Shown here one piece after another: positions 8,465-37,717 of a stretch of 64,000 nucleotides of DNA. The position numbers were made by a program, and so were the translations under genes. The stretch's first letter is position 1. Every line of letters begins with the position of its first letter. This DNA comes from Bacillus sp. FJAT-18017 (lineage in GTDB: Bacteria > Bacillota > Bacilli > Bacillales > Cytobacillaceae). The notes under the pieces were generated by a model. The model made no database searches. It was not told the origin of the DNA and saw nothing but the letters and a program-made list of their open reading frames with translations. The stretch spans positions 1,828,001-1,892,000 of the forward strand of contig NZ_CP012602.1 of assembly GCF_001278805.1 (NCBI RefSeq). The letters are read 5' to 3'.

Positions 8465-8484
8465 ATAAAATAAATTAATAACTA

Positions 8485-8738
8485 AAAGCAAAGACAGGGA
8501 AAAGTACAATGACCCGCATGCTTTCCAGAGAGGGAGACTTACCAGCTGAAAGGTTTCCCAGGCTGCCCATTGGAAACGTCACCCTCGAGCTTCTTCTGCC
8601 AACGGCCAGTGCCCAGTAGTGGAAGACGGATCAACTCCGTTAAAAACATGAGAGCCGGCTCTTTTTTATGCCGGAAAAAAGGTGGTACCGCGAGCGAACT
8701 CCATTCGTCCTTTTATAAGGGATGAGTGGAGTTTTTTA
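8485..8738 (+). promoter_or_regulatory. T-box leader of valS with GUC (Val) specifier
   Basis: A tRNA-sensing leader that controls valS by antitermination. The stem I landmarks are AAGTAC (specifier loop 5' side) and AGAGAGGGAG (AG bulge region). The specifier GTC is at 8578-8580, followed by ACCCTCGAGC, as in other Bacillus T-boxes where the codon precedes ACCTC-GAGC. The T-box sequence GGTGGTACCGCG is at 8681-8692. The terminator stem is ACTCCATTCGTCC / GGGATGAGTGGAGT, followed by TTTTTT (8698-8737). GUC reads Val, matching the downstream gene. Confidence 0.95.
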
Positions 8739-13083: not shown

Positions 13084-13112
13084 TTGTGACAAGCTTCTGA
13101 AAGTTTGATAAA
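13084..13112 (+). promoter_or_regulatory. Candidate sigma-A promoter of the GGDEF gene
   Basis: TTGTGA (13084-13089) and GATAAA (13107-13112) are spaced by 17 bases, about 45 bases before the coding start. Confidence 0.5.
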
Positions 13113-13158
13113 ATGATTTTAAAAAATTGTGACTATTTGTGGAAATGGAGGGATGGAA

Positions 13159-14871
13159 TTGAGCGTAAATTCAAGGATTAAAAAAGCTATATTTTTGTTC
13201 TGGCTATTGCTCGTTCCTCCCGGTCTTGTACTTACATATACTAGCTTTCCACCTCCGGCCGATTTAAACATACTTGACATTATCGGATTTCTTGCACTAG
13301 CTTCCATAGTTGCCTGTATGCCGATGATCATTAATGGTACACCCGTCTTCTTAATCCAATGGGTATCCATCGCTGTTTTTCTTCGCTATGGCCTTTTCGT
13401 TGAGATGATTACAGTACAGGTGTCCGTACTTGTCCTTCTTTTTAGGCTTAAGCTTCCAAAGGAGGGTATGTTCAGGCTGCCCCTCAACTCGTTAATGTTT
13501 TTTATAGTATCACTGTGCAGCGGCATCGTTTATTTTAGTCTTGGCGGCAAAATAAATCCCGACTTCGAAAATGGCGGAAATCCAATTTGGATAGCTTTAG
13601 CTTATGCGTTCTTTTATTATGTACTTCACCAGCTGATCATCATGTTTTTCCAAAGAGTTGTTTACAAGTCCAAGGAATCTTATTTTGGCAAGGATTTCGT
13701 GTGGGAATCGATAACAACAATGATTACATTCCCGCTTGGATTCGTGCTTTATAAGCTTCATGGAGATCTGTATTCTCTTGCGCTATTATTTATCGGCGGC
13801 CCTTTTGCAAGCGTGGCGCTGCTCCTGAGGGCTTTTTCCAGGACACAAGTTATCAACGAATACCTTCAGAAGGCCGCTGAAATTGGCCACCAGCTTGCCG
13901 AGCAAAGCAAGGTAAATGAGGTAACCGATCTTTTTCTACAAAAGCTTTCAGGCATGCTCCCAATTGATTATGCATTTGTCATCGAAGTTCAGGAAAATGA
14001 CCAGCTTGTGATGGTAAGAAGGATCGAGAATGGGACTGTCCTTCCGAATCGCCAATTTGCAATGAAGAAAAATCAGGGAATCAGCGGCACCGTTTGGGGA
14101 ACAGGAAAGCCGGTCCTTTTTGGAACTAAAAAGGAATGGTCCCATATTGTTAGTTCCCATGTTCCGGATGACGCGGAAAGCATACTTGGAGTGCCTATGA
14201 TGAAAAATGGCAAAACAATGGGCATTCTTGTGTTAGCATCAAGACGAAAGCGTGCCTATGAAAAGTCGCTCCTTATAATTGTCGATATCCTTTGTTCACA
14301 CTATGCCATAGCTGTCGAAAATGTGCGCCATTATGAACAGGCCAAAGAGGAAAGTGAGCGTTGTTCCCTTACCAGGCTTCATAACTATCGGTATTTTGAA
14401 AGGGTACTTAACAGGGAATTTAATCTGCTTTTACAGCACAGTCGTGAACGTTTAGCTTTGATTATTTTGGACATAGATCATTTTAAATCTGTTAATGATA
14501 CATATGGACACCAAAGCGGAAATGAAGTATTAAGGGAATTAGCGTCCCGAATCGAAAGGATTGTTGGGGAAGCCGGAACTGTCGCTCGCTATGGTGGGGA
14601 GGAGTTTGTTATACTCTTGCCTGAAGCCACGGACAGGGAAGCATACAATCTGGCGGAACTTATAAGACAATCCATTGCCAGCTGGCCATTTATCTTGAAA
14701 GAGAATATAGAAGGTGAACAGTTGTCAGTAAAAGTCACCGCATCGTTTGGGATTGCCTCTGCTCCTGATGACGCAGAAGATGCGCTAGCACTCCTCCGGC
14801 ATGCCGACCGTGCCCTTTATGTTGGGGCAAAGAGGGCTGGCAGGAATAGGGTTGCGGCGTATGTGAAATAA
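13159..14871 (+). CDS. Membrane-bound GAF-GGDEF diguanylate cyclase
   Basis: A 570-residue protein predicted to make c-di-GMP from GTP. The N-terminal 230 residues hold about seven hydrophobic helices (for example AIFLFWLLLVPPGLVL and IWIALAYAFFYYVLHQLIIMFF). A GAF-like sensor domain follows (about 250-390). The C-terminal GGDEF domain has DIDHFKSVNDTYGH and the active motif RYGGEEF. The usual inhibitory RxxD site before the motif reads GEAG, so product inhibition through that site is not expected. I prefer TTG 13159, which has GGAGGG 6 bases upstream; ATG 13153 is too close to it. It lies directly before the type IV pilus locus, suggesting pilus control. Confidence 0.9.
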   Translation: MSVNSRIKKAIFLFWLLLVPPGLVLTYTSFPPPADLNILDIIGFLALASIVACMPMIINGTPVFLIQWVSIAVFLRYGLFVEMITVQVSVLVLLFRLKLPKEGMFRLPLNSLMFFIVSLCSGIVYFSLGGKINPDFENGGNPIWIALAYAFFYYVLHQLIIMFFQRVVYKSKESYFGKDFVWESITTMITFPLGFVLYKLHGDLYSLALLFIGGPFASVALLLRAFSRTQVINEYLQKAAEIGHQLAEQSKVNEVTDLFLQKLSGMLPIDYAFVIEVQENDQLVMVRRIENGTVLPNRQFAMKKNQGISGTVWGTGKPVLFGTKKEWSHIVSSHVPDDAESILGVPMMKNGKTMGILVLASRRKRAYEKSLLIIVDILCSHYAIAVENVRHYEQAKEESERCSLTRLHNYRYFERVLNREFNLLLQHSRERLALIILDIDHFKSVNDTYGHQSGNEVLRELASRIERIVGEAGTVARYGGEEFVILLPEATDREAYNLAELIRQSIASWPFILKENIEGEQLSVKVTASFGIASAPDDAEDALALLRHADRALYVGAKRAGRNRVAAYVK

Positions 14872-14887
14872 AGGGCTTTAATAAAGC

Positions 14888-14925
14888 AAAAAGGCTAAAC
14901 GGATATTGTCCGCTTTAGCCTTTTT
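14888..14925. terminator. Bidirectional terminator between the GGDEF gene and the minor prepilin cluster
   Basis: AAAAAGGCTAAACGGA pairs with TCCGCTTTAGCCTTTTT around a short loop. A-rich and T-rich flanks allow termination in both directions of these convergent genes. Confidence 0.88.
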
Positions 14926-15842
14926 CAGTATGTTACTTTTATTCCTTCATTGGGGTTAAAAAACCATTCACTGGTATCCGGCTTTGTACATGTATTTCTA
15001 GGGATAGGATAGGAAGTAAGCTTAGCCTTTGTTGAATCCAGCAAGTATGTTTTTCCAGTGATACATATTTTATAGGCGTTTCCAATTACCGTTATTTCTT
15101 TTTCGAAAATTGCATCTCCATTAATTTGTATGGCTGCAGAACCCTGAAGTTCCAAGTCTTTAAAGTATGCCTCTCCATTTACTGTTAAAATCCGATTTCC
15201 TTGGATTGTTACTTTCTCTTTGAAGTAAGTAGAGTTGTTATTTGTTTTAAATTTCGGTGGTTTATTTAAGAGTTCTACTGGATAGTTCTCAATAATTTTG
15301 TAATGAGAAGGAACAGGCTTTAGTTCTCCGACTCTGCTATTTGTTGTACTTTTCTTAATTGTGAAGAACCCCGTTATAGGCCTTTTTTCATTGTTCGTTT
15401 GTCCCGTACTTTCAAACTTTACTATCAACTCATTTGGTTTTTCAGGATTTGGGACAAGGGATTTAAATGTTATTTTAAAATTATTACTTGGTGTATCAAC
15501 GTTCACTTGGGCATTATTTGTTTGTAAGAGGCTTGTTAAATCGCTTTTGAAGGTTTGATCCAAGTAATAATCGCGCTGTTGCTGGCTAGGATTACTCCCA
15601 GTAAAATATTGCTGGGTTTTAGATGCTGCTGTGCCTTTAGCGGAATTAACAAGTTTTTCTACAATTTTTTGATAATATGTTACTCCCATTTCTGCTATGT
15701 CCGTTGCTTTGTTAATGTCATCTGTTTTATTTAGCTGAGCTCTAGTTGATAATGCCAAACCACTTAGAGAAAGAGCAAAGATCATTGTTAAGGTAGCTAT
15801 AATCATAACCAATAACAAAGCATACCCTCTTTCACTTTTCAT
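14925..15842 (-). CDS. PilX-like pilus assembly protein with prepilin-like N-terminus
   Basis: A 305-residue protein beginning MKSERGYALLLVMIIATLTM, a short basic leader and a hydrophobic helix like those of PilX/GspK-type minor pilins. A canonical Glu at position 5 is lacking (GYALLL), as is common in PilX/GspK-like proteins. The rest is a polar beta-rich domain with many Asn/Thr/Lys. It is the last of three minus-strand genes with an 11-base gap to the preceding one. I infer a role in pilus tip priming. The gene looks AT-rich compared with the flanking core genes. Confidence 0.75.
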   Translation of the reverse strand: MKSERGYALLLVMIIATLTMIFALSLSGLALSTRAQLNKTDDINKATDIAEMGVTYYQKIVEKLVNSAKGTAASKTQQYFTGSNPSQQQRDYYLDQTFKSDLTSLLQTNNAQVNVDTPSNNFKITFKSLVPNPEKPNELIVKFESTGQTNNEKRPITGFFTIKKSTTNSRVGELKPVPSHYKIIENYPVELLNKPPKFKTNNNSTYFKEKVTIQGNRILTVNGEAYFKDLELQGSAAIQINGDAIFEKEITVIGNAYKICITGKTYLLDSTKAKLTSYPIPRNTCTKPDTSEWFFNPNEGIKVTY

Positions 15843-15853
15843 ACATTTCCCCC

Positions 15854-16309
15854 TTAATATTGTTTAATAATAGTTTCAATTTCGTAGGTTTGATTTTGTT
15901 GATTTTCTACCTTTAAGTAAATATAAAGCGGATCAGCAGTGTTGATCTTCTTTTCTCCAGAAAAGCTTGCACCATCAATTTCTATATACATTGTCTTCGT
16001 ATTAGGTTGTAATGGAACGAGAGTGGCAGATGACTTTCCAATGAATCCCTTTTTGAGTAAAGGATCATATTTTAGTACATATGTTTCAGACTTATCAGCT
16101 TCAACAGTGTGCAGTTCTTGTTTATGATGGTAATTGGTTATAGTTGCTAAGATTAAGTTCGCTTCCCGATTTAGATTTCCTTTTTCTGAAATGGTGTCAT
16201 AGTTTTTATTTGTACCAATTAAAACCCCATATAATAATCCGGATACTACTAGAATTAGTGATAAAGCTGCTAAAAGTTCAATTAAGGTTACCCCTCTATC
16301 ATTTTTCAT
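15854..16309 (-). CDS. Minor type IV prepilin (PilW-like)
   Basis: A 151-residue prepilin with the class III leader MKNDRG and the peptidase motif G-VTLIELLAALSLILVVSG, including the conserved Glu5 after the cleavage glycine. The C-terminal part is a small beta-rich head. Only three bases separate it from the upstream prepilin and 11 from the downstream PilX-like gene, so the three form one operon. It is processed by the A24 peptidase encoded at 23554. Confidence 0.85.
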   Translation of the reverse strand: MKNDRGVTLIELLAALSLILVVSGLLYGVLIGTNKNYDTISEKGNLNREANLILATITNYHHKQELHTVEADKSETYVLKYDPLLKKGFIGKSSATLVPLQPNTKTMYIEIDGASFSGEKKINTADPLYIYLKVENQQNQTYEIETIIKQY

Positions 16310-16312
16310 GGC

Positions 16313-16780
16313 TCACCTTCGAATATAAGTATATGTTTCCGATTTATCATTACTATCAGCAGGATTTTGAACAATGACCTTAAACATGATTAAATTCTCC
16401 GCGGTATTATTAATAATGAACGAACTATTATCCATAAGAGCGCTTATGGTGTAGTCGCTTGAAATTGGTTCACCTAAATATTGTTCAAGTTCCAATTTAT
16501 TTAAGGACTTTGGTTTATTTAAAACGATTCCATTGGCATCGATTAAATTTAATATTATTAAATCTTGTTTCTCTATATTGATCTCTATCAAATTTATAAT
16601 TGTTTGTGCTGTCTGCATCGTATCCAGCTTTTGTTCATTCTTTTTATTAAAGATCGCCGACTGGGTAAAGAAGCCGAGGAACGAAGTCAGTATTATCGTT
16701 AATAGAACAATTGATAGGAGAACTTCTAATAACGTAAATCCCTCTTGATTTAAGGAATTTTTGTTCACTTTGGCTTTCAC
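16313..16780 (-). CDS. Minor type IV prepilin (PilV-like)
   Basis: A 155-residue prepilin with leader MKAKVNKNSLNQEG and the motif G-FTLLEVLLSIVLLTIILTSF, with Phe1 and Glu5. It is the first gene of the minus-strand minor-pilin operon. It ends YTYIRR. Minor pilins of this kind initiate pilus assembly in type IV pilus and type II secretion systems. AGGG lies a few bases upstream of the start. Confidence 0.85.
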   Translation of the reverse strand: MKAKVNKNSLNQEGFTLLEVLLSIVLLTIILTSFLGFFTQSAIFNKKNEQKLDTMQTAQTIINLIEINIEKQDLIILNLIDANGIVLNKPKSLNKLELEQYLGEPISSDYTISALMDNSSFIINNTAENLIMFKVIVQNPADSNDKSETYTYIRR

Positions 16781-16803
16781 CCTCTTTTTAAATTAGTAAG
16801 TTT

Positions 16804-16836
16804 ATTATACAATAATCAGGAAATGAAAAATGTCAA
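16804..16836 (-). promoter_or_regulatory. Candidate promoter of the minor prepilin operon
   Basis: On the minus strand TTGACA (16836-16831) is followed by TATTGT (16814-16809) after 16 bases, or by TATAAT (16809-16804) after 21 bases. The -10 choice is ambiguous. Confidence 0.5.
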
Positions 16837-16911
16837 TTTTTATATATTTCAGTGGTATTTTGCAAACATTTGAAAAATCTAGCACCTTATTTAGTGGAAA
16901 AGGGGATTTTT

Positions 16912-17631
16912 ATGGAAGTATTTGTTTTTGGTATAGGGTCGCTCGTATTGCTTATCCCCATTTTATTCCTGCTCCCACTCGGATTAACGGCGAAAGGAAA
17001 GATTGTTACCGCACTAATTGCATCATTTTTGGCCATTGGAACCTCTCTTGGAGATGGGATATTTGAACCATGGCAAATGGGCCTTTTGCTGTTTTTGTTT
17101 TCTGGATTAATTGCTTATGTCATGAATGGAAAGCTGGGAGACTTTCTTTATACTAAAAAAGTACTAGTGGAAGGATGGAATTCACAGATACAAAAAGGTA
17201 CTGCTGATGACCACCGCCGTTTGCCTGAAATAGATGAAGTAGTTTTTGAGGATAAGAGGGAGGATGTATTAATCGCCGCTAAGGATCCTCAGGTAGGAAA
17301 AGATCTGCAAATATCGATAGATGAAAATAACCTCTATCAGATTTCTTCCCTATCAGAAGTTGCTGTTTCGGGCATGGATAATGAAGTTGAAGTTTCCTTT
17401 CTTGATGATATTGGGTTCGATATAAGTACGGAAGCTTCACCGATAGAACCCTCTGTTATCCTCTCTGAGGAAAAAACAGGTTCTGTTGATGAATCCCTCC
17501 CGCTGCTGGACTTCGATATTGTTGATCCGAATCAATCTAAAGAATTGCGGGGATCTATGATAGAAGTGGAAGAGGAATACTTATCCGCTGTTCTTGAGGT
17601 TGCCGCTGGTATAAAGCAGGCCGATAGATGA
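16912..17631 (+). CDS. Membrane protein of unknown function, first gene of the pilus operon
   Basis: A 239-residue protein I do not recognise. The first 85 residues carry three to four hydrophobic helices (VFVFGIGSLVLLIPILFLLPLGL, IVTALIASFLAIGTSLGDGIF, MGLLLFLFSGLIAYVM). The remaining 150 residues are acidic, polar and probably cytoplasmic (for example DEVVFEDKREDV, EVSFLDDIGFDI). ATG 16912 is preferred because AAAGGGG lies 8-9 bases upstream. A gap of 43 bases leads to the VanW/G5-like gene, so it is likely co-transcribed with pilBTC. I infer a role in pilus assembly or its control. Confidence 0.8.
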   Translation: MEVFVFGIGSLVLLIPILFLLPLGLTAKGKIVTALIASFLAIGTSLGDGIFEPWQMGLLLFLFSGLIAYVMNGKLGDFLYTKKVLVEGWNSQIQKGTADDHRRLPEIDEVVFEDKREDVLIAAKDPQVGKDLQISIDENNLYQISSLSEVAVSGMDNEVEVSFLDDIGFDISTEASPIEPSVILSEEKTGSVDESLPLLDFDIVDPNQSKELRGSMIEVEEEYLSAVLEVAAGIKQADR

Positions 17632-17674
17632 TTGTGAAATACGTGAGGTTCCCAATAGGAAGGGGCTATTTCCT

Positions 17675-19069
17675 TTGAAAAAGAATCAGCAATTTATAAA
17701 ACTCTTTATTATCCTGTTCCTATGCTCTGCTTATGTATTTGGGTTTTCAAATTATGGAGCTAAAGCCTTCGGTTCACTTTTCGCTGGTAACGAAGGATAC
17801 CTGCCGGGAACTGCTGTTGGAACAATTAACCTTGAAGGGAAATCCCCAACAGAAGCATTGGACATGCTAAAGGCTGGCCTGGCAGAGTGGCAGGCAAATA
17901 CTGCGTATAAATTAGTTTACAAAGAAAAAATGATAGAGTTGGATAAAGAACAGTTCGCTTTTGATTTTGAAGGAACCGTTACATCACTAGTCAATGGCCG
18001 GCAAAATGCATTGAGTATCAGTGTGGATGAAGCGGCAATTGTAGAATGGATAACTTTGATTTCTCCGCAGCTTATAGGCCAGGAAATCAACCTTAAAGAC
18101 CTTCATGCAAAACTCATAGAACCGGCATCAACTTTACAATCCGGGGAAGTTGTTATAAAGCTTGCTGAATTTATTGTTGGAGTAAATCAGAATCCTGAAG
18201 TGATTACTACAGGTACTGTTGATGTTAAAGAGTCTTCCCACGAACTCGAGAAGGCTGTAGAAGCTTTTCAAGGAATCACAATTCAAGCAAGTTCAGAATT
18301 CTCATTCCTTCGTTATATAGAAAATGAGAAGTTGGAGAGCCTTTCTTCCGACGCGCTCAGTATGATGGCATCTGCAGTGTATATAGCGGTGCTCCACACA
18401 AATTTTGAATTAATAGAACGAAATATTAGTAAAGAAATCCCTGAATTTAGTGATCTCGGTTCAGAAGCACGTATTGAGCCGGAGCGGGGAATTGATTTCT
18501 CTTTTTATAATCCAAATGAAGCTGAATTCAAACTGGATTTTGAGTATGCTGGAGACACACTTACTGCATCCATAATTGGTATACCATTTCTCTATGAATA
18601 CAAGGCTGTTTCAGATGGAAAAGAGGAATTTAAGCCAAAAACAATTATTCAATACAGTCCTCTTTTAACAACTGGCCAGGTAACGATTGAAGAAGAAGGT
18701 AAAGAAGGAAAAATCATCACTATTTACAGAGAAGTGTACAGCAATGGAACACTGATTGACACCGTTGCAATTTCTGAGGATTATTATCCACCTGTCCCAA
18801 GGGTAGAGATTAGGGCACTATCTGCAGTTCCGACAAATCCAGTTAGCCCAAACCCTGTGGGGACAACGGATCCAGATCCTGGAACTAACCCGGTTGAAGG
18901 GAATCCCGTTTTAGTTACGCCTTCACCTTCAGAAGGAGAAAGTAATCCTGCTGTCATGGACCCATCAGCATTGCCAGTTGAAGTTGATGATGATGCTACG
19001 ACTGAGGAGCCTAGTGAAAGTGGCGATGATGGTGATCTTTGGGGCAAGCCAAATGAGCAACCGAAATAA
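17675..19069 (+). CDS. Secreted or membrane-anchored VanW-like protein with G5 domain
   Basis: A 464-residue protein starting at TTG 17675, with AGGAAGGGG 10 bases upstream. Residues 8-25 form a signal peptide or anchor (KLFIILFLCSAYVFGFSN). The middle (about 200-315) resembles a diverged VanW domain (ALSMMASAVYIAVLHTNFELIERN). A G5-like domain (about 325-385, TIIQYSPLLTTGQVTIEEEGKEG...VYSNGTLIDT) follows. The tail is Pro/Asp/Glu-rich and low-complexity. VanW and G5 regions occur in cell-wall-associated proteins. Its place directly before pilB suggests a part that guides or anchors the pilus in the wall; this is inference. Confidence 0.82.
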   Translation: MKKNQQFIKLFIILFLCSAYVFGFSNYGAKAFGSLFAGNEGYLPGTAVGTINLEGKSPTEALDMLKAGLAEWQANTAYKLVYKEKMIELDKEQFAFDFEGTVTSLVNGRQNALSISVDEAAIVEWITLISPQLIGQEINLKDLHAKLIEPASTLQSGEVVIKLAEFIVGVNQNPEVITTGTVDVKESSHELEKAVEAFQGITIQASSEFSFLRYIENEKLESLSSDALSMMASAVYIAVLHTNFELIERNISKEIPEFSDLGSEARIEPERGIDFSFYNPNEAEFKLDFEYAGDTLTASIIGIPFLYEYKAVSDGKEEFKPKTIIQYSPLLTTGQVTIEEEGKEGKIITIYREVYSNGTLIDTVAISEDYYPPVPRVEIRALSAVPTNPVSPNPVGTTDPDPGTNPVEGNPVLVTPSPSEGESNPAVMDPSALPVEVDDDATTEEPSESGDDGDLWGKPNEQPK

Positions 19070-19089
19070 ACGATAAGCAGGGATGTTGA

Positions 19090-20751
19090 ATGAGACAAGC
19101 ACGAAAACGGCTCGGAGATCTGCTTACCGAAGCAGGAATCATTTCAGAAGAACAACTTCAAGCTGCTTTGAAGGATAAAGCACCGAAACAAAGGCTTGGA
19201 GAAGCATTGGTACAACGTGGATTTATTACGGAACACCAGCTAATTGAAGTGCTGGAGTTCCAGTTGGGTATTCCCCATATCAGCCTGTTTAACTATCCAT
19301 TTGATAAAAATCTCTTTAGTCTTGTTCCAAAGGAGCTAGCCAGAAGGCATTTAATAATACCTCTTAAAAAAGACGGGGACAAACTCTTTATTGCAATGTC
19401 GGACCCGATGGACTTTCTTGCCATCGATGACCTTAGGCTAATGACAGGTTTTCATATTGAAACAGCTATTGCCACGAAGGATGACATCCTTCGGTCAATC
19501 AATAAATATTACAATACCGACGAAGGTCTTGAAGAACTTCTTGGTGAGCTTCCAACAAAGGATGGAGCCGCTAGTGATGATGTTACTGACCTTGATTCAC
19601 CCATCGTCAGGCTTGTAAACCAGATTCTGGTCAATGCGGCTGTTCAACGTGCCAGTGATATCCATATCGACCCGCATGAAACAAAAGTAGTGATTCGTTA
19701 CCGGATAGATGGAATTTTACGAGTGGAGAGAACTCTTCCAAAAAACATGCAAAACATTCTTGCTGCGAGAATCAAGATTATGTCCAACCTAGATATTACT
19801 GAATATCGTATCCCTCAGGATGGACGGATTAAGCTGAATATTGATTTTCATCCTATTGATTTGCGAGTTTCAACCCTACCAACTGTTTACGGGGAAAAAA
19901 TTGTTCTGCGTCTGCTCGATATGGGAAGCGCATTGAATGATTTGGCGAAGCTTGGTTTCAATCAGCTTAATCACAAAAGATTCATCGAGATGATAGAGCG
20001 GCCTACTGGGATTGTATTAATAACCGGGCCAACCGGGTCGGGTAAATCTTCAACACTATATGCTGCTCTGAACAAGCTGAACAGTGAAGCCGTTAATATA
20101 ATTACAGTTGAGGATCCGGTCGAGTACCAGCTTGAAGGAATTAATCAAATCCAGGTAAACCAGAATGTCGGGATGACATTTGCAGCCGGTTTGCGCTCTA
20201 TTCTCCGCCAGGATCCAAACATAATAATGGTTGGGGAAATCCGGGATAAAGAAACAGCTGATATTGCAGTTCGTGCTTCCTTGACCGGCCATCTTGTTTT
20301 AAGCACGCTCCATACGAATGATGCGTTAGGTACGGTTTCAAGGCTGATTGATATGGGCGTAGAGCCATTCATGGTTGCCGCATCATTGAGCGGGATAGTA
20401 GCCCAGCGCCTTGTAAGGAAGGTTTGCCGCGATTGTGCGGGGATGGTCGAACCGTCAAAACGGGAACTTGAGATTTTCGCGAAACGCGGGATCAGGATTG
20501 AGAAGGTTCCGCGTGGTATTGGGTGCTCATCATGTAATATGACTGGCTATAAGGGGCGTATTGCACTGCACGAGGTTCTCCCAATTAGTGACGACATGAA
20601 ACGCCTGATAATGGACGGAGAATCAATCCAGCGCCTCAAGGAAATTGCCTTAAAAAATAAAACAATTTTTCTAATAGATGATGGCCTGCTAAAAATAAAA
20701 CAAGGATTGACAACAACTGAGGAAGTACTGAGAGTGGCGATCCTGGAGTAG
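19090..20751 (+). CDS. pilB: PilB, type IV pilus extension ATPase with MshEN-type N-terminal domain
   Basis: A 553-residue hexameric motor ATPase. The N-terminus has two tandem motifs, RLGDLLTEAGIISEEQL (from R7) and RLGEALVQRGFITEHQL (from R35, ending Q58 LGIP). These match the MshEN pattern that binds c-di-GMP in other bacteria. The catalytic half has Walker A GPTGSGKS (313-320), the Asp box ITVEDPVEYQ, Walker B IIMVGEIRDKETADIA and the zinc tetracysteine CRDC...CSSC. It is 20 bases after the VanW-like gene and 9 bases before pilT. Confidence 0.96.
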   Translation: MRQARKRLGDLLTEAGIISEEQLQAALKDKAPKQRLGEALVQRGFITEHQLIEVLEFQLGIPHISLFNYPFDKNLFSLVPKELARRHLIIPLKKDGDKLFIAMSDPMDFLAIDDLRLMTGFHIETAIATKDDILRSINKYYNTDEGLEELLGELPTKDGAASDDVTDLDSPIVRLVNQILVNAAVQRASDIHIDPHETKVVIRYRIDGILRVERTLPKNMQNILAARIKIMSNLDITEYRIPQDGRIKLNIDFHPIDLRVSTLPTVYGEKIVLRLLDMGSALNDLAKLGFNQLNHKRFIEMIERPTGIVLITGPTGSGKSSTLYAALNKLNSEAVNIITVEDPVEYQLEGINQIQVNQNVGMTFAAGLRSILRQDPNIIMVGEIRDKETADIAVRASLTGHLVLSTLHTNDALGTVSRLIDMGVEPFMVAASLSGIVAQRLVRKVCRDCAGMVEPSKRELEIFAKRGIRIEKVPRGIGCSSCNMTGYKGRIALHEVLPISDDMKRLIMDGESIQRLKEIALKNKTIFLIDDGLLKIKQGLTTTEEVLRVAILE

Positions 20752-20760
20752 GAGATCAAA

Positions 20761-21813
20761 ATGAAGGACCAAATAGACCAGATTCTAAGGGCGGCCTCTG
20801 AACATAAGGCATCGGATGTTCATTTGACAGTAGGTGTTCCGCCGATATTAAGAATCAATGGCGACTTGAAACGGTACGGCAAAGAGCCACTTAAACCGGC
20901 TGATACAGAAAGCATGGCTAAAGCGATTATCCCGGAGACAATGTGGCAAATTTTTAAGGAAAAAGGGGAGCTTGATTTTTCCTACAGTGTACCCGGTGTA
21001 TCCCGGTTCAGGGTCAATACGTACCATCAGCGAAATTGCATTGCAATTGCCTTACGTACTGTGCCATCTAAAATACCTACCATTGAAGAATTGGGAATGC
21101 CGGATACGTTAAAAAAACTGATGGAGAAGCCGCAGGGTCTAGTGCTTGTAACAGGGCCAACCGGAAGCGGAAAGTCAACAACACTTGCTTCGATGATTCA
21201 TTATATGAACATGACAATGCGGAATCACATTATTACTCTCGAGGATCCAATTGAATATTTGCATAAGCATGGAAATTGTATTATAGATCAACGGGAGGTA
21301 GGCTTCGATACTGGCAATTTTGCCAACGGGCTTCGCGCCGCGCTCCGTCAGGATCCGGATGTCATCCTTGTAGGTGAAATGCGAGACCTTGAAACAATCC
21401 AGACAGCAATAACTGCAGCCGAAACAGGCCATCTTGTCCTTGGAACGCTGCATACATCTAGCGCACCGGCAACAATCAACAGGATCATCGATGTATTTCC
21501 ACCCAACCAACAGCCACAAATACGGATTCAGCTTGCTTCAGTTCTAGTCGGAATTATTTCGCAGCGACTTTTCCCGACTGCGGACAGGACTGGCAGGAGG
21601 GCGGCAACTGAAATCATGGTCAATAACCCTGCGATTGCCAACTTGATTCGTAATGAAAAGATTCACCAAATAGCGAGTATTATGCAAACGTCACGTGCCC
21701 TCGGGATGCATACACTGGATTATGCTATTAAAGAAATGATTGAGCGGGGGACTATCCTTAAGGATGTCGCGGAGCCGTACTTGCAGGAGTTGATTTTCAA
21801 TGGCCAGGTTTAA
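20761..21813 (+). CDS. pilT: PilT, type IV pilus retraction ATPase
   Basis: A 350-residue ATPase that depolymerises pili. It has Walker A GPTGSGKST, the Asp box TLEDPIEYLH, Walker B DVILVGEMRDLETI, the His box TLHTSSAPATINRIIDVFP and a C-terminal AIRNLIRE-like segment (AIANLIRNEK). It lacks the zinc tetracysteine found in PilB, as expected. A retraction motor implies dynamic pili (twitching or DNA capture), not only a competence pseudopilus. TAGGAG precedes ATG 20761. Its end overlaps pilC by 14 bases. Confidence 0.97.
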   Translation: MKDQIDQILRAASEHKASDVHLTVGVPPILRINGDLKRYGKEPLKPADTESMAKAIIPETMWQIFKEKGELDFSYSVPGVSRFRVNTYHQRNCIAIALRTVPSKIPTIEELGMPDTLKKLMEKPQGLVLVTGPTGSGKSTTLASMIHYMNMTMRNHIITLEDPIEYLHKHGNCIIDQREVGFDTGNFANGLRAALRQDPDVILVGEMRDLETIQTAITAAETGHLVLGTLHTSSAPATINRIIDVFPPNQQPQIRIQLASVLVGIISQRLFPTADRTGRRAATEIMVNNPAIANLIRNEKIHQIASIMQTSRALGMHTLDYAIKEMIERGTILKDVAEPYLQELIFNGQV

Positions 21814-23014
21814 ATATGAGGGTCGTGACAGACGTGGCTCAAGGCAGGGTGTCATCAATGCTGTTTCAAAACGTGAAGCTCTTCTTAAATTAAAGGAAGA
21901 TGGGGTCCGGGTTGTCGATATAAGCGAGGTTCCGGAAACACTTCTGACAAAGGACATCACAATTGGAAATCCTGTAAAGCTTGAGCATTTTGTTATTTAT
22001 ATTCGCCAATTTGCAACGTTGTTAAAAGCAGGGGTAACCGTTGTTGATGCGACAGCCATTCTTTCTCAGCAAACTGAAAGCAAACCGCTTAGAAAAGCCC
22101 TGATTTCCATTGAATCGGAATTGCGGGAAGGACACCAGCTTTCGCAGGCATTAGCGAAGCATAAGAAAATATTCACCCCGATGTTTGTAAATATGCTTCG
22201 GGCTGGAGAAGCGAGTGGTAACCTTGACGGGACGCTTGAAAGATTAGCCCAGCATTTTGAGAAACAGCATCACACCAAGCAGAAAATAGTTTCCGCGTTG
22301 TCATATCCAGCTGTCATCGGTTTTATAGCAGTTGGAGTTGTCATTTTTCTCCTTGTGTCAGTAGTTCCTACATTCGTAGACATGTTTGATGGGATGAATG
22401 CTGAATTGCCGGGAATAACTAAATTTGTCCTTTCGGCAAGCGATTTCGTTCAACAATTTTGGTGGCTCCTTCTATTGCTTGGTGTATTTGTAAGCGTAGC
22501 GTTTCTTGTTATGAAGAGAAACAAGGAGACGAAGTATTATCTTGACTATGCCTTGCTGAGAATGCCAATCTTCGGCAAGCTCCTGCAAAAAGCAGCCCTG
22601 GCCAGGTTAACAAGAACATTAAGTTCATTATTTTCCAGTTCGGTTCCGATTCTGCAGGCGATGTCCATAGTGGAGAATGTAGTTGAAAATGAAGTGATTG
22701 CGAGAGTAGTAAAGAAGTCGCGGGATTCTTTAGAAAAGGGGCAGTCGATGACAATCCCGATGGATGAACACTGGGCCTTTCCGCCTCTAGTCACGCAAAT
22801 GATATCAATAGGAGAACAAACCGGTTCCCTTGATGCGATGCTGGACAAAGTAGCCGAGTTTTATGAAAAAGAAGTCGATACAGGAACTGACCGCTTAAAA
22901 TCATTGATAGAACCCTTAATGATAGTGGTTCTCGCAGGACTAGTAGGAACGATTGTTTTGAGCATTATGGTACCTATGTTTGAGATGTTTAACCAATTTG
23001 ACAAGAACTACTAA
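21800..23014 (+). CDS. pilC: PilC, inner membrane platform protein (GspF family)
   Basis: A 404-residue platform protein with two GspF domains. It begins MARFKYEGRDRRGSRQGVI, has FVIYIRQFATLLKAGVTVVDA and HTKQKIVSALSYPAVIG before the first membrane helices, and a second copy (LARLTRTLSSLFSSSVPILQA) before the C-terminal helix (LMIVVLAGLVGTIVLSIMVP). It connects PilB/PilT to the growing pilus. The 14-base overlap with pilT indicates coupling. Confidence 0.96.
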   Translation: MARFKYEGRDRRGSRQGVINAVSKREALLKLKEDGVRVVDISEVPETLLTKDITIGNPVKLEHFVIYIRQFATLLKAGVTVVDATAILSQQTESKPLRKALISIESELREGHQLSQALAKHKKIFTPMFVNMLRAGEASGNLDGTLERLAQHFEKQHHTKQKIVSALSYPAVIGFIAVGVVIFLLVSVVPTFVDMFDGMNAELPGITKFVLSASDFVQQFWWLLLLLGVFVSVAFLVMKRNKETKYYLDYALLRMPIFGKLLQKAALARLTRTLSSLFSSSVPILQAMSIVENVVENEVIARVVKKSRDSLEKGQSMTIPMDEHWAFPPLVTQMISIGEQTGSLDAMLDKVAEFYEKEVDTGTDRLKSLIEPLMIVVLAGLVGTIVLSIMVPMFEMFNQFDKNY

Positions 23015-23041
23015 AAATAGTGAAATTTTTACAAAAAGCCA

Positions 23042-23070
23042 TTTTTTACAGGAAACATCTGTTGTATAAT
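23042..23070 (+). promoter_or_regulatory. Candidate promoter of the major pilin gene
   Basis: A perfect TATAAT (23065-23070) is preceded by the T-rich TTTTTA (23042-23047) at 17 bases, or by TTTACA (23045-23050) at 14 bases. It lies in the 106-base gap between pilC and the pilin gene, so the pilin can be expressed apart from the operon. Confidence 0.55.
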
Positions 23071-23120
23071 GAGAGTGTACTAATTTTATAGGTTTTTAGA
23101 CCTTAAAAGGAGCGGGGAAA

Positions 23121-23564
23121 ATGTTCAAGGCTTTGAAAAGGAAAATGAAAGATCAACGTGGTTTAACGCTTATTGAACTGTTGGCCGTTATTGTTATTTT
23201 GGGAATTATCGCAGCAATTGCAATACCTTCAATAGGAGGTTTAATTACAAAAACTAAGAATGATGCAAAAGTTGCTGAAGCAATCCAAATCATCAATGCG
23301 GCTAAATTGTCACGCGCATCCAATGCTAGTATTACTCAATGGGATGATGATGGATCTTTGACGCCAAGTGGTGGTGGCACAGCGGTCAGTATTGGTAAAA
23401 TTGGAGATTTGGTTGAAAATGTAAAGGATGCTGGTAAAGATTATCTAGTAGAATATGTTGGTGGAGTATACAGAATTTCCGAGCATGATGCAAATACTGT
23501 AGTTTCTGGTGCTACAACAGGATTCGCTACCGAAGATGAATTATTAAAGTACAGTGGAAACTAA
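23121..23564 (+). CDS. Type IV major prepilin (PilA-like)
   Basis: A 147-residue prepilin with a 14-residue basic leader (MFKALKRKMKDQRG). The mature N-terminus is LTLIELLAVIVILGIIAAIAIPSI, with Leu at +1 (Phe is more usual) and the conserved Glu5. The small head has a flexible Gly/Thr/Ser region (SGGGTAVSIGKIGDLVENVKDAGKDYL) and no cysteine pair. AAAGGAGCGGGG lies upstream of ATG 23121. Its own candidate promoter and its place among pil genes suggest it is the major subunit. Its stop overlaps the start of the peptidase gene by 11 bases. Confidence 0.92.
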   Translation: MFKALKRKMKDQRGLTLIELLAVIVILGIIAAIAIPSIGGLITKTKNDAKVAEAIQIINAAKLSRASNASITQWDDDGSLTPSGGGTAVSIGKIGDLVENVKDAGKDYLVEYVGGVYRISEHDANTVVSGATTGFATEDELLKYSGN

Positions 23565-24312
23565 TTTATTTATAGGAATTGTTTTTATTTACGGCATCAC
23601 CCTCGGCTCCTTCTACAATGTTGTCGGCCTAAGAGTGCCTGAAGGAAAATCGATTGTCCGTCCAGGCTCTTCATGCCCGAACTGCGGGCATAAGCTTAGA
23701 GCGTGGGAATTGGTTCCTGTATTTTCATATGTTTTTCAAAGGGGGAAATGCCGTGGCTGTGAGTCGCGGATTTCCCCTGTTTATCCAATCATGGAGCTTT
23801 TAACGGGGATTTTATTTGTCCTGGCACCTTTACTCCTGGGTTGGAGCCTGGAGCTAGTAATAGTCTGGACGTTGATTTCGCTGTTTATCATCATTACTGT
23901 ATCCGACATCGCTTATATGCTCATCCCTGATAAAATCTTAATTGTGTTTGCAGGGATTTTTTTATTTGAACGTATCCTTTGGCCGCTTTCCCCCTGGTGG
24001 GATTCCCTTGTTGGCGGGGCTGCTGGATTTAGTCTTCTTTTACTGATTTCAATTATCAGCAAAGGCGGTATGGGCGGAGGAGATATTAAGCTTTATGCTC
24101 TAATTGGTTTTGTGCTTGGAACAAAGCTGGTGCTTTTGTCTTTCTTCCTCTCCACATTATTCGGAGCGATGTTTGGAATTGTGGGTATATTTTTAAAAAT
24201 TGTTAAGCGGCGCCAGCCAATACCGTTTGGGCCATTTATTGCCCTGGGAACGCTGGTTGCGTATTTTTTCGGAAACGAATTAATTAAGATGTATTTAAAT
24301 TTATTTATATAG
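23554..24312 (+). CDS. pilD: Prepilin peptidase / N-methyltransferase (A24 family; PilD/ComC)
   Basis: A 252-residue polytopic membrane protease that cuts prepilins after the leader Gly and methylates the new N-terminus. It has the zinc tetracysteine CPNC...CRGC (about 46-73) and the two catalytic aspartates in SDIAYMLIPD and GMGGGDIKL. The GTG start at 23554 lies inside the pilin gene. It sits at the position of B. subtilis comC and probably serves both this pilus and any com pseudopilus elsewhere. ComC is the Bacillus name for this family. Confidence 0.95.
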   Translation: METNLFIGIVFIYGITLGSFYNVVGLRVPEGKSIVRPGSSCPNCGHKLRAWELVPVFSYVFQRGKCRGCESRISPVYPIMELLTGILFVLAPLLLGWSLELVIVWTLISLFIIITVSDIAYMLIPDKILIVFAGIFLFERILWPLSPWWDSLVGGAAGFSLLLLISIISKGGMGGGDIKLYALIGFVLGTKLVLLSFFLSTLFGAMFGIVGIFLKIVKRRQPIPFGPFIALGTLVAYFFGNELIKMYLNLFI

Positions 24313-24345
24313 TAGTTGTAACCTGATAACAAAGGGGTAGTTTGC

Positions 24346-25341
24346 ATGGCTTTTTCCCTTTCGCTTGGCAACAAACGAACGATCAACATCATATTTAACG
24401 ACCACAGCATACGTTTTCTCGAGCTTAAGTCTGCCACTCCTCCTGTTCCTCAGAGATGGGGAGAGCGCTTTCTTCCTCCCGGGATTATTGAGGAAGGGAA
24501 AATTGTAGACTTTGAAACTCTTTCTACTATTCTTGATGAGTGTATTGACGAATGGAAGATTAGCAGACGGCCTATCCATTTTGTAGTTCCTGATCCACTG
24601 GTTATTATTCGAAAAATCACTATTCCTGGAGACATAGAGGAGGATGAGATAGAAAGTCATCTTTATATGGAGCTTGGAGCCAGCATACATTTGCCGTTTG
24701 AAGACCCGGTTTTTGACGCTTATCCTCTGGGCGTGAAGGACGGGAAGAAAGAACTACTCTTATTTGCTTCTCCTGAAAAATATGTTATGGAGTATTCGGA
24801 GCTATTGTCAGGTTTAAGGCTTGTTCCCGTCTCGGCGGATATTTCACCACTTGCCTTATATCGCCTTTATCATTCTTTGAATGGACTACAGCCCAACGAG
24901 CGGTTGTTTACCGTCCAGGTAAATATGACTTCTGTCAGTATGTGTATCTTTGAGAACCATATCCCTTATTTTATGAGGCAGTTTCAGTTGGATTTCGATG
25001 CAAATAACTGGGAAGTTCTTCATGATCGATCAGGGGCGAGCGAATACAAGTTTATTGGCGAGGCCTTTCAGCTCGAATGGCAATTTTCGAATATCTATTC
25101 GGAAATGGTCAAGCTTATGGATTTTTATAAGTATTCCGCGAATGTTGAAACTTCAGGAATAACCAAAATCCTTCTCGTGGGAGACCATCCCATGCTAGCG
25201 CGTATCCATGAAGAAATTAAAGAGCAATTTACACTGCCAGTAGTTGTTTTTTCAACTGACAAAATACAGAATAACCGGGATAGAACCTTCCCTCAAACGC
25301 ATACTCTTGCACTTGGGCTTTCACTGAAAGAGGTGAGATGA
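24346..25341 (+). CDS. pilM: PilM-like actin-fold pilus assembly protein
   Basis: A 331-residue cytoplasmic protein of the PilM family (actin/FtsA-like fold). It has RTINIIFNDHSIRFLELK as the first nucleotide-site strand, VVPDPLVIIRKITIPGDIEEDEIESHLYMEL, and the later KILLVGDHPMLARI. In type IV pilus systems PilM binds the cytoplasmic tail of PilN and connects to PilB/PilC. It begins the pilMNO group. The start of pilN overlaps it by four bases. Confidence 0.88.
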   Translation: MAFSLSLGNKRTINIIFNDHSIRFLELKSATPPVPQRWGERFLPPGIIEEGKIVDFETLSTILDECIDEWKISRRPIHFVVPDPLVIIRKITIPGDIEEDEIESHLYMELGASIHLPFEDPVFDAYPLGVKDGKKELLLFASPEKYVMEYSELLSGLRLVPVSADISPLALYRLYHSLNGLQPNERLFTVQVNMTSVSMCIFENHIPYFMRQFQLDFDANNWEVLHDRSGASEYKFIGEAFQLEWQFSNIYSEMVKLMDFYKYSANVETSGITKILLVGDHPMLARIHEEIKEQFTLPVVVFSTDKIQNNRDRTFPQTHTLALGLSLKEVR

Positions 25342-25976
25342 TGCTGATTGAAATTAATTTGCTACCGAAAAAGAAGCAAGAAAGCAGAAAGCTTCTCACT
25401 TCCACTTTGATATTGGCACTTCTCTTTATCACGGCGGGCGGGGCGCTTTTCTGGCAAGCTTCGACTTTGAAAGCCGATGTTGCTGTTGTTGAAAATAGAT
25501 TAGATACGACTAAAAAATTAGCAGAGATTGAACAAAAGAAAACAACCGAGCTCACTGAAGCGGATTCTGTTTCCAAGCTTGAACAGTCAGTTGTTTGGGC
25601 TGAAGACTATATTGTCCCTTCTGTACCAGTGATGCGGGAATTCACCTCATTACTACCGGAGCGAGGATTTATCCAGACTTTTGCTTATCAGGAATCCGGT
25701 ACTCTATCACTGACAGTCCAATTCGACACAAGTAGGGAAGCAGCTTATTTCCTAAACAGACTGAACGAGTCAGAATGGGTAAATGAAGCGATGCTTTTAA
25801 GTTTGACAGCTACACAGCAAGTCGGAGAGCCGGCAACTGAAACTACTTTAAACTTGAATAATGATAATGAGGAAGAAATACTGCCTCGTTACCAGGGGCA
25901 ATTTGAGATAAAGCTTAATAAGGACACTGTAAAGTCTTCAGTTCTTGAAGACGAGGAAGGAGAGAGCGGGCTATGA
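25338..25976 (+). CDS. pilN: PilN-like bitopic pilus assembly protein
   Basis: A 212-residue protein whose N-terminus MMLIEINLLPKKKQ matches the INLLP motif that PilN uses to bind PilM. One membrane helix follows (TLILALLFITAGGALFWQA), then a coiled coil (about 45-75) and a small ferredoxin-like outer domain. ATG 25338 overlaps the pilM stop (ATGATG) and its own stop overlaps pilO by four bases, so the three are tightly coupled. Confidence 0.9.
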   Translation: MMLIEINLLPKKKQESRKLLTSTLILALLFITAGGALFWQASTLKADVAVVENRLDTTKKLAEIEQKKTTELTEADSVSKLEQSVVWAEDYIVPSVPVMREFTSLLPERGFIQTFAYQESGTLSLTVQFDTSREAAYFLNRLNESEWVNEAMLLSLTATQQVGEPATETTLNLNNDNEEEILPRYQGQFEIKLNKDTVKSSVLEDEEGESGL

Positions 25977-26797
25977 GGCTGGATTCGAAAAAGCAAAACC
26001 TAATCATAGCTAGCCTTTCTGCCCTATTTGTCTTGTTTGTGGCTGGAGGTTATTTCCTCTGGGTTCAGCCATTGAAGGCAGACCTTGAAACGAAAGAAGC
26101 TTCACTTAAAACAGAGGAACAGCTTTTGGGAGTTTTGCAAGGCAAGGAAAAGGAAACAGAAGAGTTTTCATCAGAAAGTACAACCCAGCTCCAAACGAAA
26201 ATTCCAGTTAAACCGCTTGTTGAACAATTGATTCTTGATTTTGAAAAAGCAGAAGTAATCTCTGGCTCCAAAGTTCTTTCAATGTCATTTGCACAGGATG
26301 GAGGCGTAGAAAATACTGAAGAAAACCCTGACGGGGCAGCCCTAGAAGCTGTCGCAAATGAGACAACTATCGAAGCTGCGGAAGGTGATACAATTGATGG
26401 AACTACAACTGACGAGAACGGTAAGCTTGTTGAGCCGAAGTCGGTAATTGCGGTTCCTGAAGGAGTCAAAAAAGTAACCGTCCAGCTTGCCCTTGAAGCA
26501 GCTGGATACGAGGAAATTGAAAAGTTTATTGCAACCCTTGAAAGTCTTAAGCGGATTGCTGTTGTTGAATCGATTAACTATATCGGTAACCATGAAGTAA
26601 CAACTATTTTAGCTGAAGAACCATCATTGAAATTTACAATAACACTTTCAGCCTTCTACATGCCGGACCTTGCTGATCTTGCCAAGCATACACCGACTAT
26701 CGAAACACCTGAGCCTGCTAAAAAACGGAATCCGTTAACAACATTCTCGACACCTGAGAAGAATGAAACTGAAACAGACGATAAAAGTGAAAATTAA
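25973..26797 (+). CDS. pilO: PilO-like bitopic pilus assembly protein
   Basis: A 274-residue protein with one N-terminal membrane helix (LIIASLSALFVLFVAGGYFLWV), a coiled coil (about 30-75, EASLKTEEQLLGVLQGKEKETEEF) and a C-terminal domain with GYEEIEKFIATLESLKRIAVVESINY typical of PilO. An acidic Thr/Glu-rich insert lies in the middle (about 115-155). It pairs with PilN on the outer face of the membrane. It is the last pilus gene and is followed by a terminator. There is no pilP or secretin gene, as expected for a Gram-positive cell. Confidence 0.9.
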   Translation: MRLDSKKQNLIIASLSALFVLFVAGGYFLWVQPLKADLETKEASLKTEEQLLGVLQGKEKETEEFSSESTTQLQTKIPVKPLVEQLILDFEKAEVISGSKVLSMSFAQDGGVENTEENPDGAALEAVANETTIEAAEGDTIDGTTTDENGKLVEPKSVIAVPEGVKKVTVQLALEAAGYEEIEKFIATLESLKRIAVVESINYIGNHEVTTILAEEPSLKFTITLSAFYMPDLADLAKHTPTIETPEPAKKRNPLTTFSTPEKNETETDDKSEN

Positions 26798-37608: not shown

Positions 37609-37717
37609 GTTATGTTTGTAGCGCACCCGTGCTACAACCGCTCAGAACAGGTTTTCAAGATTTGCGGGAGCAAACGCCTGGGTTGGCGAGTCTTAGACTA
37701 AGAGGAGGTGCAAGTTC
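37609..37717 (+). promoter_or_regulatory. Ribosomal protein L21 leader
   Basis: A structured leader before rplU. TGTAGC pairs with GCTACA around GCACCCGT (37617-37636). Further conserved-looking segments are CCGCTCAGAACAGG, TTTGCGGGAGCAAACGCC and TTGGCGAGTC before the AGGAGG. It resembles the L21 leader found in Bacillus, thought to let L21 control its own operon. Confidence 0.8.

What the first reader, a model, noticed from the sequence alone, without database searches (positions are those of the whole stretch)
13159..26797. Possible local c-di-GMP circuit: diguanylate cyclase next to a type IV pilus with an MshEN-type PilB
Seen: a membrane GAF-GGDEF protein with an intact RYGGEEF motif lies directly before the pilus locus. 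PilB begins with two tandem RLGxxLxxxG...L motifs (R7 and R35). Known: such tandem motifs define the MshEN domain, which binds c-di-GMP in MshE and related ATPases. Inference: the cyclase feeds the pilus motor directly. The first motif ends in K30 where Q is usual, so affinity may differ. This layout would be a compact signal-to-pilus module in a sporulating Bacillus relative.
Basis: partly seen in the sequence, partly recalled or inferred. Interest (0 to 1): 0.75.

Follow-up and report, generated by a model that had tools for sequence, protein, structure and literature searches.

The report
c-di-GMP-type pilus motor beside cyclase
A Bacillus relative carries a pilus motor with a c-di-GMP-sensing type of domain, and beside it a likely c-di-GMP-making enzyme that has kept this neighbourhood across many Bacilli but also persists where the pilus genes are gone, so the pair looks like an old shared address rather than a proven private circuit.

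Summary

"The cyclase feeds the motor directly" is not established. In the window a two-way terminator and three opposite-strand genes separate them. The cyclase survives, under purifying selection, in genomes without pilB; in one genus whose pilus locus moved it stayed at folC. PilB keeps its motifs in genomes without the cyclase. This genome has 11 other GGDEF places.

New: K30 is no quirk. In family and order samples 124 of 130 PilBs end motif I in K (1 in R) with a shorter linker; outside the order 56 of 66 have Q and the normal linker, with K or R next in 55 of 66. This reads best as a one-codon deletion of the ligand-contacting glutamine. Binding itself is untested.

The parts
13159..14871 (+). 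membrane GAF-GGDEF protein, predicted diguanylate cyclase (start TTG 13159; ORF opens at 13129)
13086..13114 (+). sigma-70-like promoter match just upstream of the cyclase (10 of 12, TG before the second hexamer); consensus match only
   Evidence: 40 promoter-like sites found against 35.1 expected in shuffles, so not significant as such
13912..14319 (+). GAF domain of the cyclase (residues 252-387)
14365..14850 (+). GGDEF domain (residues 403-564); RYGGEEF at 14587-14607; no RxxD I-site (GEAG at that position)
14888..14925 (.). two-way intrinsic terminator between the convergent cyclase and the minus-strand genes (predicted)
   Evidence: sequence; fold -19.9 and -19.2 kcal/mol, z -5.9 and -6.3
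14925..16780 (-). three genes on the opposite strand: a 305-aa protein without a family, and two N_methyl (minor pilin-like) proteins
16852..17631 (+). 259-aa protein (orfX), no Pfam family up to E = 5; found upstream of pilB in many of the relatives mapped
17675..19069 (+). VanW-G5 protein directly before pilB, an arrangement seen in most relatives mapped
19090..20751 (+). PilB, pilus extension ATPase
19108..19179 (+). MshEN motif I (residues 7-30, ends in K30)
19192..19263 (+). MshEN motif II (residues 35-58, ends in Q58)
19264..19527 (+). MshEN C-subdomain (PF05157, residues 59-146)
   Evidence: model
20761..21813 (+). PilT retraction ATPase
21800..23014 (+). PilC platform protein (GspF/PilC family; below the strict NCBIfam equivalog cut-offs)
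23121..23564 (+). pilin
23554..24312 (+). prepilin peptidase (PilD/ComC)
24346..26797 (+). PilM, PilN-like and T2SSM-like genes
   Evidence: the PilN and T2SSM matches lie just below the Pfam cut-offs

Best explanation
The locus encodes a type IV pilus whose extension ATPase PilB carries an MshEN domain and most likely responds to c-di-GMP. Ligand bound between motifs I and II would change the N-terminal domain and so bias the motor towards extension, as in MshE. In most Bacillales PilBs the glutamine that ends motif I has been lost, best explained by a one-codon deletion, with the next basic residue (here K30) in its place and a linker one residue shorter; this should lower affinity or change the contact with the phosphate. 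The neighbouring GAF-GGDEF protein is an old resident of the folC site. It probably makes c-di-GMP and can contribute to the pool that PilB reads, but it is not a dedicated or required partner: it is kept without the pilus, the pilus is kept without it, and here the two appear to be transcribed apart. Shown: domains, motifs, predicted fold, neighbourhood, distribution, constraint. Inferred: cyclase activity, c-di-GMP binding, effect on piliation, transcript ends.
Against: No binding or activity data exist for this clade in anything I read. The motif-I glutamine matters in Thermus PilF GSPII-B (Q190E: 6 to 950 nM; PMC11731258, passages), and GSPII-A, which has H and R at the two Gln positions among other changes, does not bind (PMC12002112, passages and one section), so binding could be weak or absent here. 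Against 'not dedicated': the pair co-occurs more than chance would give (odds ratio 2.7 and 2.8, not corrected for phylogeny); broken cyclases are somewhat commoner where pilB is absent (3 of 19 against 3 of 131); only one genus shows a moved pilus locus, so that test rests on what is probably one event. The dN/dS values have no counterpart from pil-bearing genomes: the 12 such loci tried were too divergent for a usable pair.
Confidence: 0.58

Rival explanations
1. Dedicated local circuit: the membrane cyclase makes c-di-GMP next to the pilus base and this pool sets PilB activity.
For: Linkage in 108 of 110, 76 of 79 and 16 of 21 outside the order, including two genomes (G627, G647) whose PilB keeps the glutamine; co-occurrence odds ratio 2.7-2.8; no I-site in the cyclase (G at residue 473 in 70 of 70 rows), so no canonical product inhibition; in other families the cyclase and vanW-pilB are co-directional with no opposed gene between (L189-L193 and L195-L197); a second pilus type sits beside the same cyclase in G041 and G354.
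Against: Apparently separate transcription units in the window. Cyclase without an MshEN PilB in 20 of 152 and 38 of 170 cyclase-bearing genomes, under purifying selection in those tested. MshEN without the cyclase in 29 of 161 and 71 of 203. In genus g71, where the same type of pilus locus lies about 590 kb away (G374, G417, G438), no GGDEF match lies in the roughly 20 kb fetched around pilB (3 of 3; best E 0.6) and the cyclase is still at folC (2 of 2 fetched).
Confidence: 0.22
2. PilB's MshEN domain in this clade no longer senses c-di-GMP: the fold remains as a structural or docking domain after the glutamine was lost.
For: The lost residue contacts phosphate and ribose in solved complexes (PMC5013675 and PMC11731258, passages); some MshEN-fold domains do not bind (XpsE per PMC5013675; GSPII-A per PMC12002112).
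Against: RLG/KLG, the stacking leucines and Q58 stay conserved in the samples; single Gln mutants of GSPII-B still bind (950 and 460 nM, PMC11731258, passages); the MshEN authors' relaxed search motif allows K as the last residue (PMC5013675, passage).
Confidence: 0.15
3. The cyclase has nothing to do with the pilus; both merely occupy the conserved folC-maf interval.
For: Cyclase next to folC with or without pil; kept when pilB is absent or elsewhere.
Against: Co-occurrence above chance, and a different pilus gene order with a Q-type PilB beside the same cyclase in G354 and G041.
Confidence: 0.2

Closest known systems
Vibrio cholerae MshE, MshEN domain (PDB 5htl; PMC5013675, passages read)
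   Different: First glutamine absent (K30), 4-residue instead of 5-residue linker; a cyclase gene lies in the same locus
Thermus thermophilus PilF GSPII-B (PDB 8pdk; PMC11731258, passages read)
   Same: MshEN fold in a pilus ATPase; also tolerates a one-residue loss (in its motif II) and non-R motif starts
   Different: Has glutamines at both motif ends and 6 nM affinity; three GSPII domains in tandem
Clostridium perfringens PilB2 (read only in the review PMC11656802, passages)
   Same: Gram-positive type IV pilus ATPase with an MshEN-type motif; binds c-di-GMP in vitro
   Different: The review calls its motif nearly identical to MshEN; in this clade the first glutamine is missing
Paenibacillus thiaminolyticus PilB (PMC9765702, passages read)
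   Same: Bacilli type IV pilus PilB with MshEN domain
   Different: Described there as having a perfectly conserved motif; the two same-class Q-type PilBs (L170, L175) are of this kind
SadC-PilO coupling in Pseudomonas aeruginosa (read in the review PMC11656802, passages)
   Same: A diguanylate cyclase functionally tied to a type IV pilus
   Different: There an interaction with the pilus machine modulates the cyclase; here only gene neighbourhood is known

Membership tests
MshEN domain (c-di-GMP receptor) | MshEN fold | tested here: met
MshEN domain (c-di-GMP receptor) | two RLGxxL(L)xxG(L)(L)xxxxLxxxLxxQ motifs with a 5-residue linker | tested here: inconclusive
   Motif II meets it; motif I meets all but the last residue (K for Q) and the linker has 4 residues. 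The authors' relaxed search motif allows K at that place
MshEN domain (c-di-GMP receptor) | binds c-di-GMP | not testable with these tools
   needs titration with purified domain
Type IV pilus extension ATPase PilB | T2SSE ATPase with MshEN N-domain, beside PilT and PilC | tested here: met
   TIGR02538 PilB 632.6 bits is under its strict equivalog cut-off 675.65
Diguanylate cyclase (GGDEF) | GG[DE]EF catalytic signature in a GGDEF domain | tested here: met
   RYGGEEF; GGEEF in 70 of 70 alignment rows (69 loci and the window, some genomes fetched twice; 10 of 79 loci with partial or other matches left out)
Diguanylate cyclase (GGDEF) | RxxD inhibitory site (optional in the family) | tested here: not met
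   GEAG in the window; G at residue 473 in 70 of 70 rows
Diguanylate cyclase (GGDEF) | makes c-di-GMP | not testable with these tools
   needs an enzyme assay
Dedicated local c-di-GMP circuit | cyclase and receptor conserved together | tested here: inconclusive
   linked in 108 of 110 and 76 of 79, but each also occurs alone
Dedicated local c-di-GMP circuit | cyclase moves or is lost with its target | tested here: not met
   cyclase kept under purifying selection without pilB; stays at folC in the one genus with a moved locus (2 of 2 fetched)
Dedicated local c-di-GMP circuit | direct contact or phenotype specific to this cyclase | not testable with these tools
   needs genetics or pull-down
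c-di-GMP riboswitch control of pilus genes (as in C. difficile) | c-di-GMP riboswitch upstream | tested here: not met
   none at Rfam gathering score in the window or in 7 relatives' loci

The most novel reading that the evidence does not exclude
Bacillales PilBs form a distinct, re-tuned class of MshEN sensor: a single-codon deletion removed the glutamine that clamps one phosphate of c-di-GMP and put an almost invariant lysine in its place, giving a lower-affinity or differently selective nucleotide switch on the pilus motor, fed in part by a co-resident cyclase that lacks the canonical product-inhibition site.
Probability: 0.2. Interest if true: 0.65.

Novelty: new variant of a known kind. 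Interest (0 to 1): 0.42.

Why it matters
c-di-GMP control of Gram-positive pili has been tested in few species (Clostridia, in what I read). A residue loss fixed across most Bacillales PilBs sampled, at a residue whose change in Thermus PilF alters affinity about 158-fold and reduces twitching, is a natural experiment on how affinity of this receptor is set. The neighbourhood data also caution against reading gene adjacency as a private signalling circuit: the cyclase follows folC more than it follows the pilus.

Tried and rejected
Operon with pilB in this genome: rejected (opposite-strand genes and predicted terminator). c-di-GMP riboswitch: none at gathering score. 'K in 75 of 75' is withdrawn: that view printed only the window's columns and so hid inserted residues; the recount without alignment is 55 of 57 after removing duplicates. 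In one search my first motif-II positions (52, 56, 59) were one off; the correct ones are 51, 55 and 58. Origin of K30 by plain substitution plus a separate linker deletion is not excluded, only less economical. G186 and G188 were first taken as genomes with a moved pilus locus; a recheck shows that their distant PilB is the other, Q-bearing type, so only the three genomes of genus g71 (probably one event) count as moved. For this I lowered the best explanation from 0.60 to 0.58 and raised the dedicated circuit from 0.20 to 0.22. Identity of the cyclase's membrane sensor domain: no Pfam match and no fold obtained. Prior report of the folC-cyclase-pilus neighbourhood or of the Bacillales glutamine loss: not seen in the listings of searches (open-access library only; supplements not readable) or in the passages read; the PLoS One survey of Gram-positive pili (PMC3244431, passages) has no occurrence of GGDEF, diguanylate or c-di-GMP in its main text. 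The C. perfringens PilB2 paper (PMC5405213) is not held.

Limits: co-occurrence tests are not corrected for phylogeny. Position rows were cut by the tool, so linkage counts cover 122 of 132 (family) and 85 of 132 (order) genomes with both. The genomes on different contigs (12 family, 6 order) could not be judged. G054 is counted as a broken cyclase only because it matched in two pieces, and G090, which was not listed, as intact. Cyclase relatives outside the order go down to 24% identity and may not all be orthologues. The PilB AlphaFold alignment holds 29 close sequences. One of the 20 order loci fetched as 'both' (G196) ended before pilB.
Full report
What is there. The window is bases 1828001-1892000 of a 5.27 Mb single-contig genome, close to Bacillus sp. 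EB01 (94% on the cyclase). A 570-residue protein (13159-14871) has about 245 N-terminal residues without a Pfam family, a GAF domain and a GGDEF domain with RYGGEEF at 477-483. After it come three minus-strand genes (two with pilin N-methylation signals), then on the plus strand a protein without a family, a VanW-G5 protein, PilB, PilT, PilC, a pilin, a prepilin peptidase, PilM, a PilN-like and a T2SSM-like gene and a SPOR-domain protein, followed by ORFs that I name maf, radC and mreB from recall of the sequences and their known order.

K30 is the mark of a clade. I extracted PilB N-termini and measured the motifs without alignment, after removing duplicates. Family: 55 of 57 end motif I in K with 28 residues between motif starts; 2 have Q and 29. 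Order outside the family: 68 K/28, 1 K/27, 1 R/28 and 3 Q/29 of 73. Other Bacillota: tandem motifs in 66 of 68, of which 56 are Q/29, 1 is K/28 and 9 are other combinations; the residue just after motif I is K in 41 and R in 14 of 66. Among 20 further PilBs from families outside the order whose genomes carry a cyclase relative, 13 are K/28, 1 K/27 and 6 Q/29; one more genome gave no motif pair. Thus K goes with a shortened linker and Q with the normal one. The simplest reading is that the codon of the glutamine was deleted and the following basic residue took its place. In solved complexes this glutamine bonds phosphate and ribose (PMC5013675 and PMC11731258, passages). In PilF GSPII-B the change Q190E weakens binding from 6 to 950 nM and reduces twitching, yet binding persists (PMC11731258, passages), and that domain also tolerates a one-residue loss in motif II. 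For MshE, changes of Arg9, Asp12 or Gln32 are reported to cost no more than about fivefold (PMC5013675, passage). In GSPII-A, with H and R at the two places among other changes, there is no binding (PMC12002112, passages and one section). So binding by this clade is likely but may be weaker; this is inference.

The neighbourhood is old. In 193 genomes of the family the cyclase N-terminus is found in 152 and MshEN in 161: both in 132, cyclase only 20, MshEN only 29, neither 12 (odds ratio 2.7, p 0.019). Positions of both were printed for 122; 110 are on one contig and in 108 of these pilB lies downstream on the same strand within 20 kb; 2 are 1.3 Mb apart and 12 are on different contigs. In 299 genomes of the order: 170 and 203; both 132, cyclase only 38, MshEN only 71, neither 58 (odds ratio 2.8, p 5.6e-5). 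Of 85 with both positions printed, 76 are linked, 3 are unlinked on one contig and 6 on different contigs. In a class sample of 249 genomes 34 have a cyclase relative, 25 of them outside the order; 21 of the 25 have MshEN and 16 of these 21 are linked, 1 is not and 4 are on different contigs. Two of the linked ones (G627, G647) have a PilB that keeps the glutamine, so linkage is found with both PilB types. These tests ignore phylogeny.

But the cyclase is tied to folC. Gene maps by tblastn with the window's proteins show valS-folC-cyclase-[pil]-SPOR-maf-radC-mreB, with the cyclase the next mapped gene after folC in 45 of 45 cyclase-bearing loci (44 genomes, as L013 and L105 are one) and 30 of 30. 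In four of the loci outside the order (L334-L336, L340) the gap after folC is wider, and in L333 only the GGDEF part was matched. Genomes without pilB keep folC-cyclase, mostly followed by a prepilin peptidase, then SPOR and maf. There GGEEF is intact in 15 of 15 full-length copies, and in G186 and G188, and dN/dS among seven pilB-less relatives of genus g10 is 0.10-0.26, and 0.06-0.08 among G186-G188 of genus g23, whose folC site has no pilus genes; no pil-bearing pair close enough for comparison was obtained. In three genomes of genus g71 (G374, G417, G438) the same type of pilus locus lies about 590 kb away; no GGDEF match lies in the roughly 20 kb fetched around pilB (3 of 3, best E 0.6) and the cyclase is still at folC in the two fetched. 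In G186 and G188 the distant PilB is the other, Q-bearing type, again without a GGDEF match beside it. PilBs of genomes without the cyclase keep both motifs (10 of 10 order loci; 57 of 57 family PilBs with and without the cyclase). Against this, broken cyclases are commoner where pilB is absent (3 of 19 against 3 of 131, p 0.027), a weak hint of linked use.

In this window the two appear to be transcribed apart: a hairpin with T-runs on both strands lies between the convergent cyclase and the minus-strand genes (-19.9 and -19.2 kcal/mol, z -5.9 and -6.3), and the pil genes start beyond a divergent interval. In other families (L189-L193, L195-L197) no opposite-strand gene of 70 residues or more was found between the cyclase and pilB, so read-through may exist there. 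No c-di-GMP riboswitch was found in the window or in 7 relatives' loci.

The genome has 12 GGDEF places, 7 EAL places (5 in the same open frame as a GGDEF, judged from coordinates) and 4 PilZ places, so PilB can read a common pool. The cyclase lacks the RxxD site, so product inhibition of the usual kind is not expected.

Verdict. Observation confirmed. MshEN supported. A compact private circuit is possible but not favoured. The most informative new point is the clade-wide loss of the motif-I glutamine. The literature searches (listings, with passages of named papers) did not show either point in print; only an open-access library was searched.

Noticed in passing
L079 (G041), L116 (G005), L201 (G354), L263 (G278), L262 (G277), L344 (G186), L345 (G188): PilBs of these genomes keep the motif-I glutamine and the normal linker; where the surroundings were mapped (L079, L116, L201, L344, L345) the pilus genes have another order (pilD early, pilB late). 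In G041 and G354 this second type also sits beside the same cyclase at folC.
   Followed up: partly
L337 (G782), L338 (G753); also G848: Two copies of the cyclase in tandem between folC and the pilus genes (mapped in L337 and L338; G848 from match positions only).
   Followed up: no
window 17675-19069: A VanW-G5 protein lies directly before pilB in the window and in most relatives mapped, also where the pilus locus moved (L341-L343); role in the pilus unknown.
   Followed up: partly
window 13159-13893: N-terminal membrane domain of the cyclase has conserved polar residues (Q67, E82, Q87, R106, N110, E183) but no Pfam family: possible undescribed sensor domain.
   Followed up: partly
L123 (G024), about 4.6 kb: A weak GGDEF match right after folC in a genome scored as lacking the cyclase; possibly a remnant.
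   Followed up: no
window 8482-8715 and 37626-37703: T-box leader upstream of valS and an L21 leader (Rfam); ordinary.
   Followed up: no
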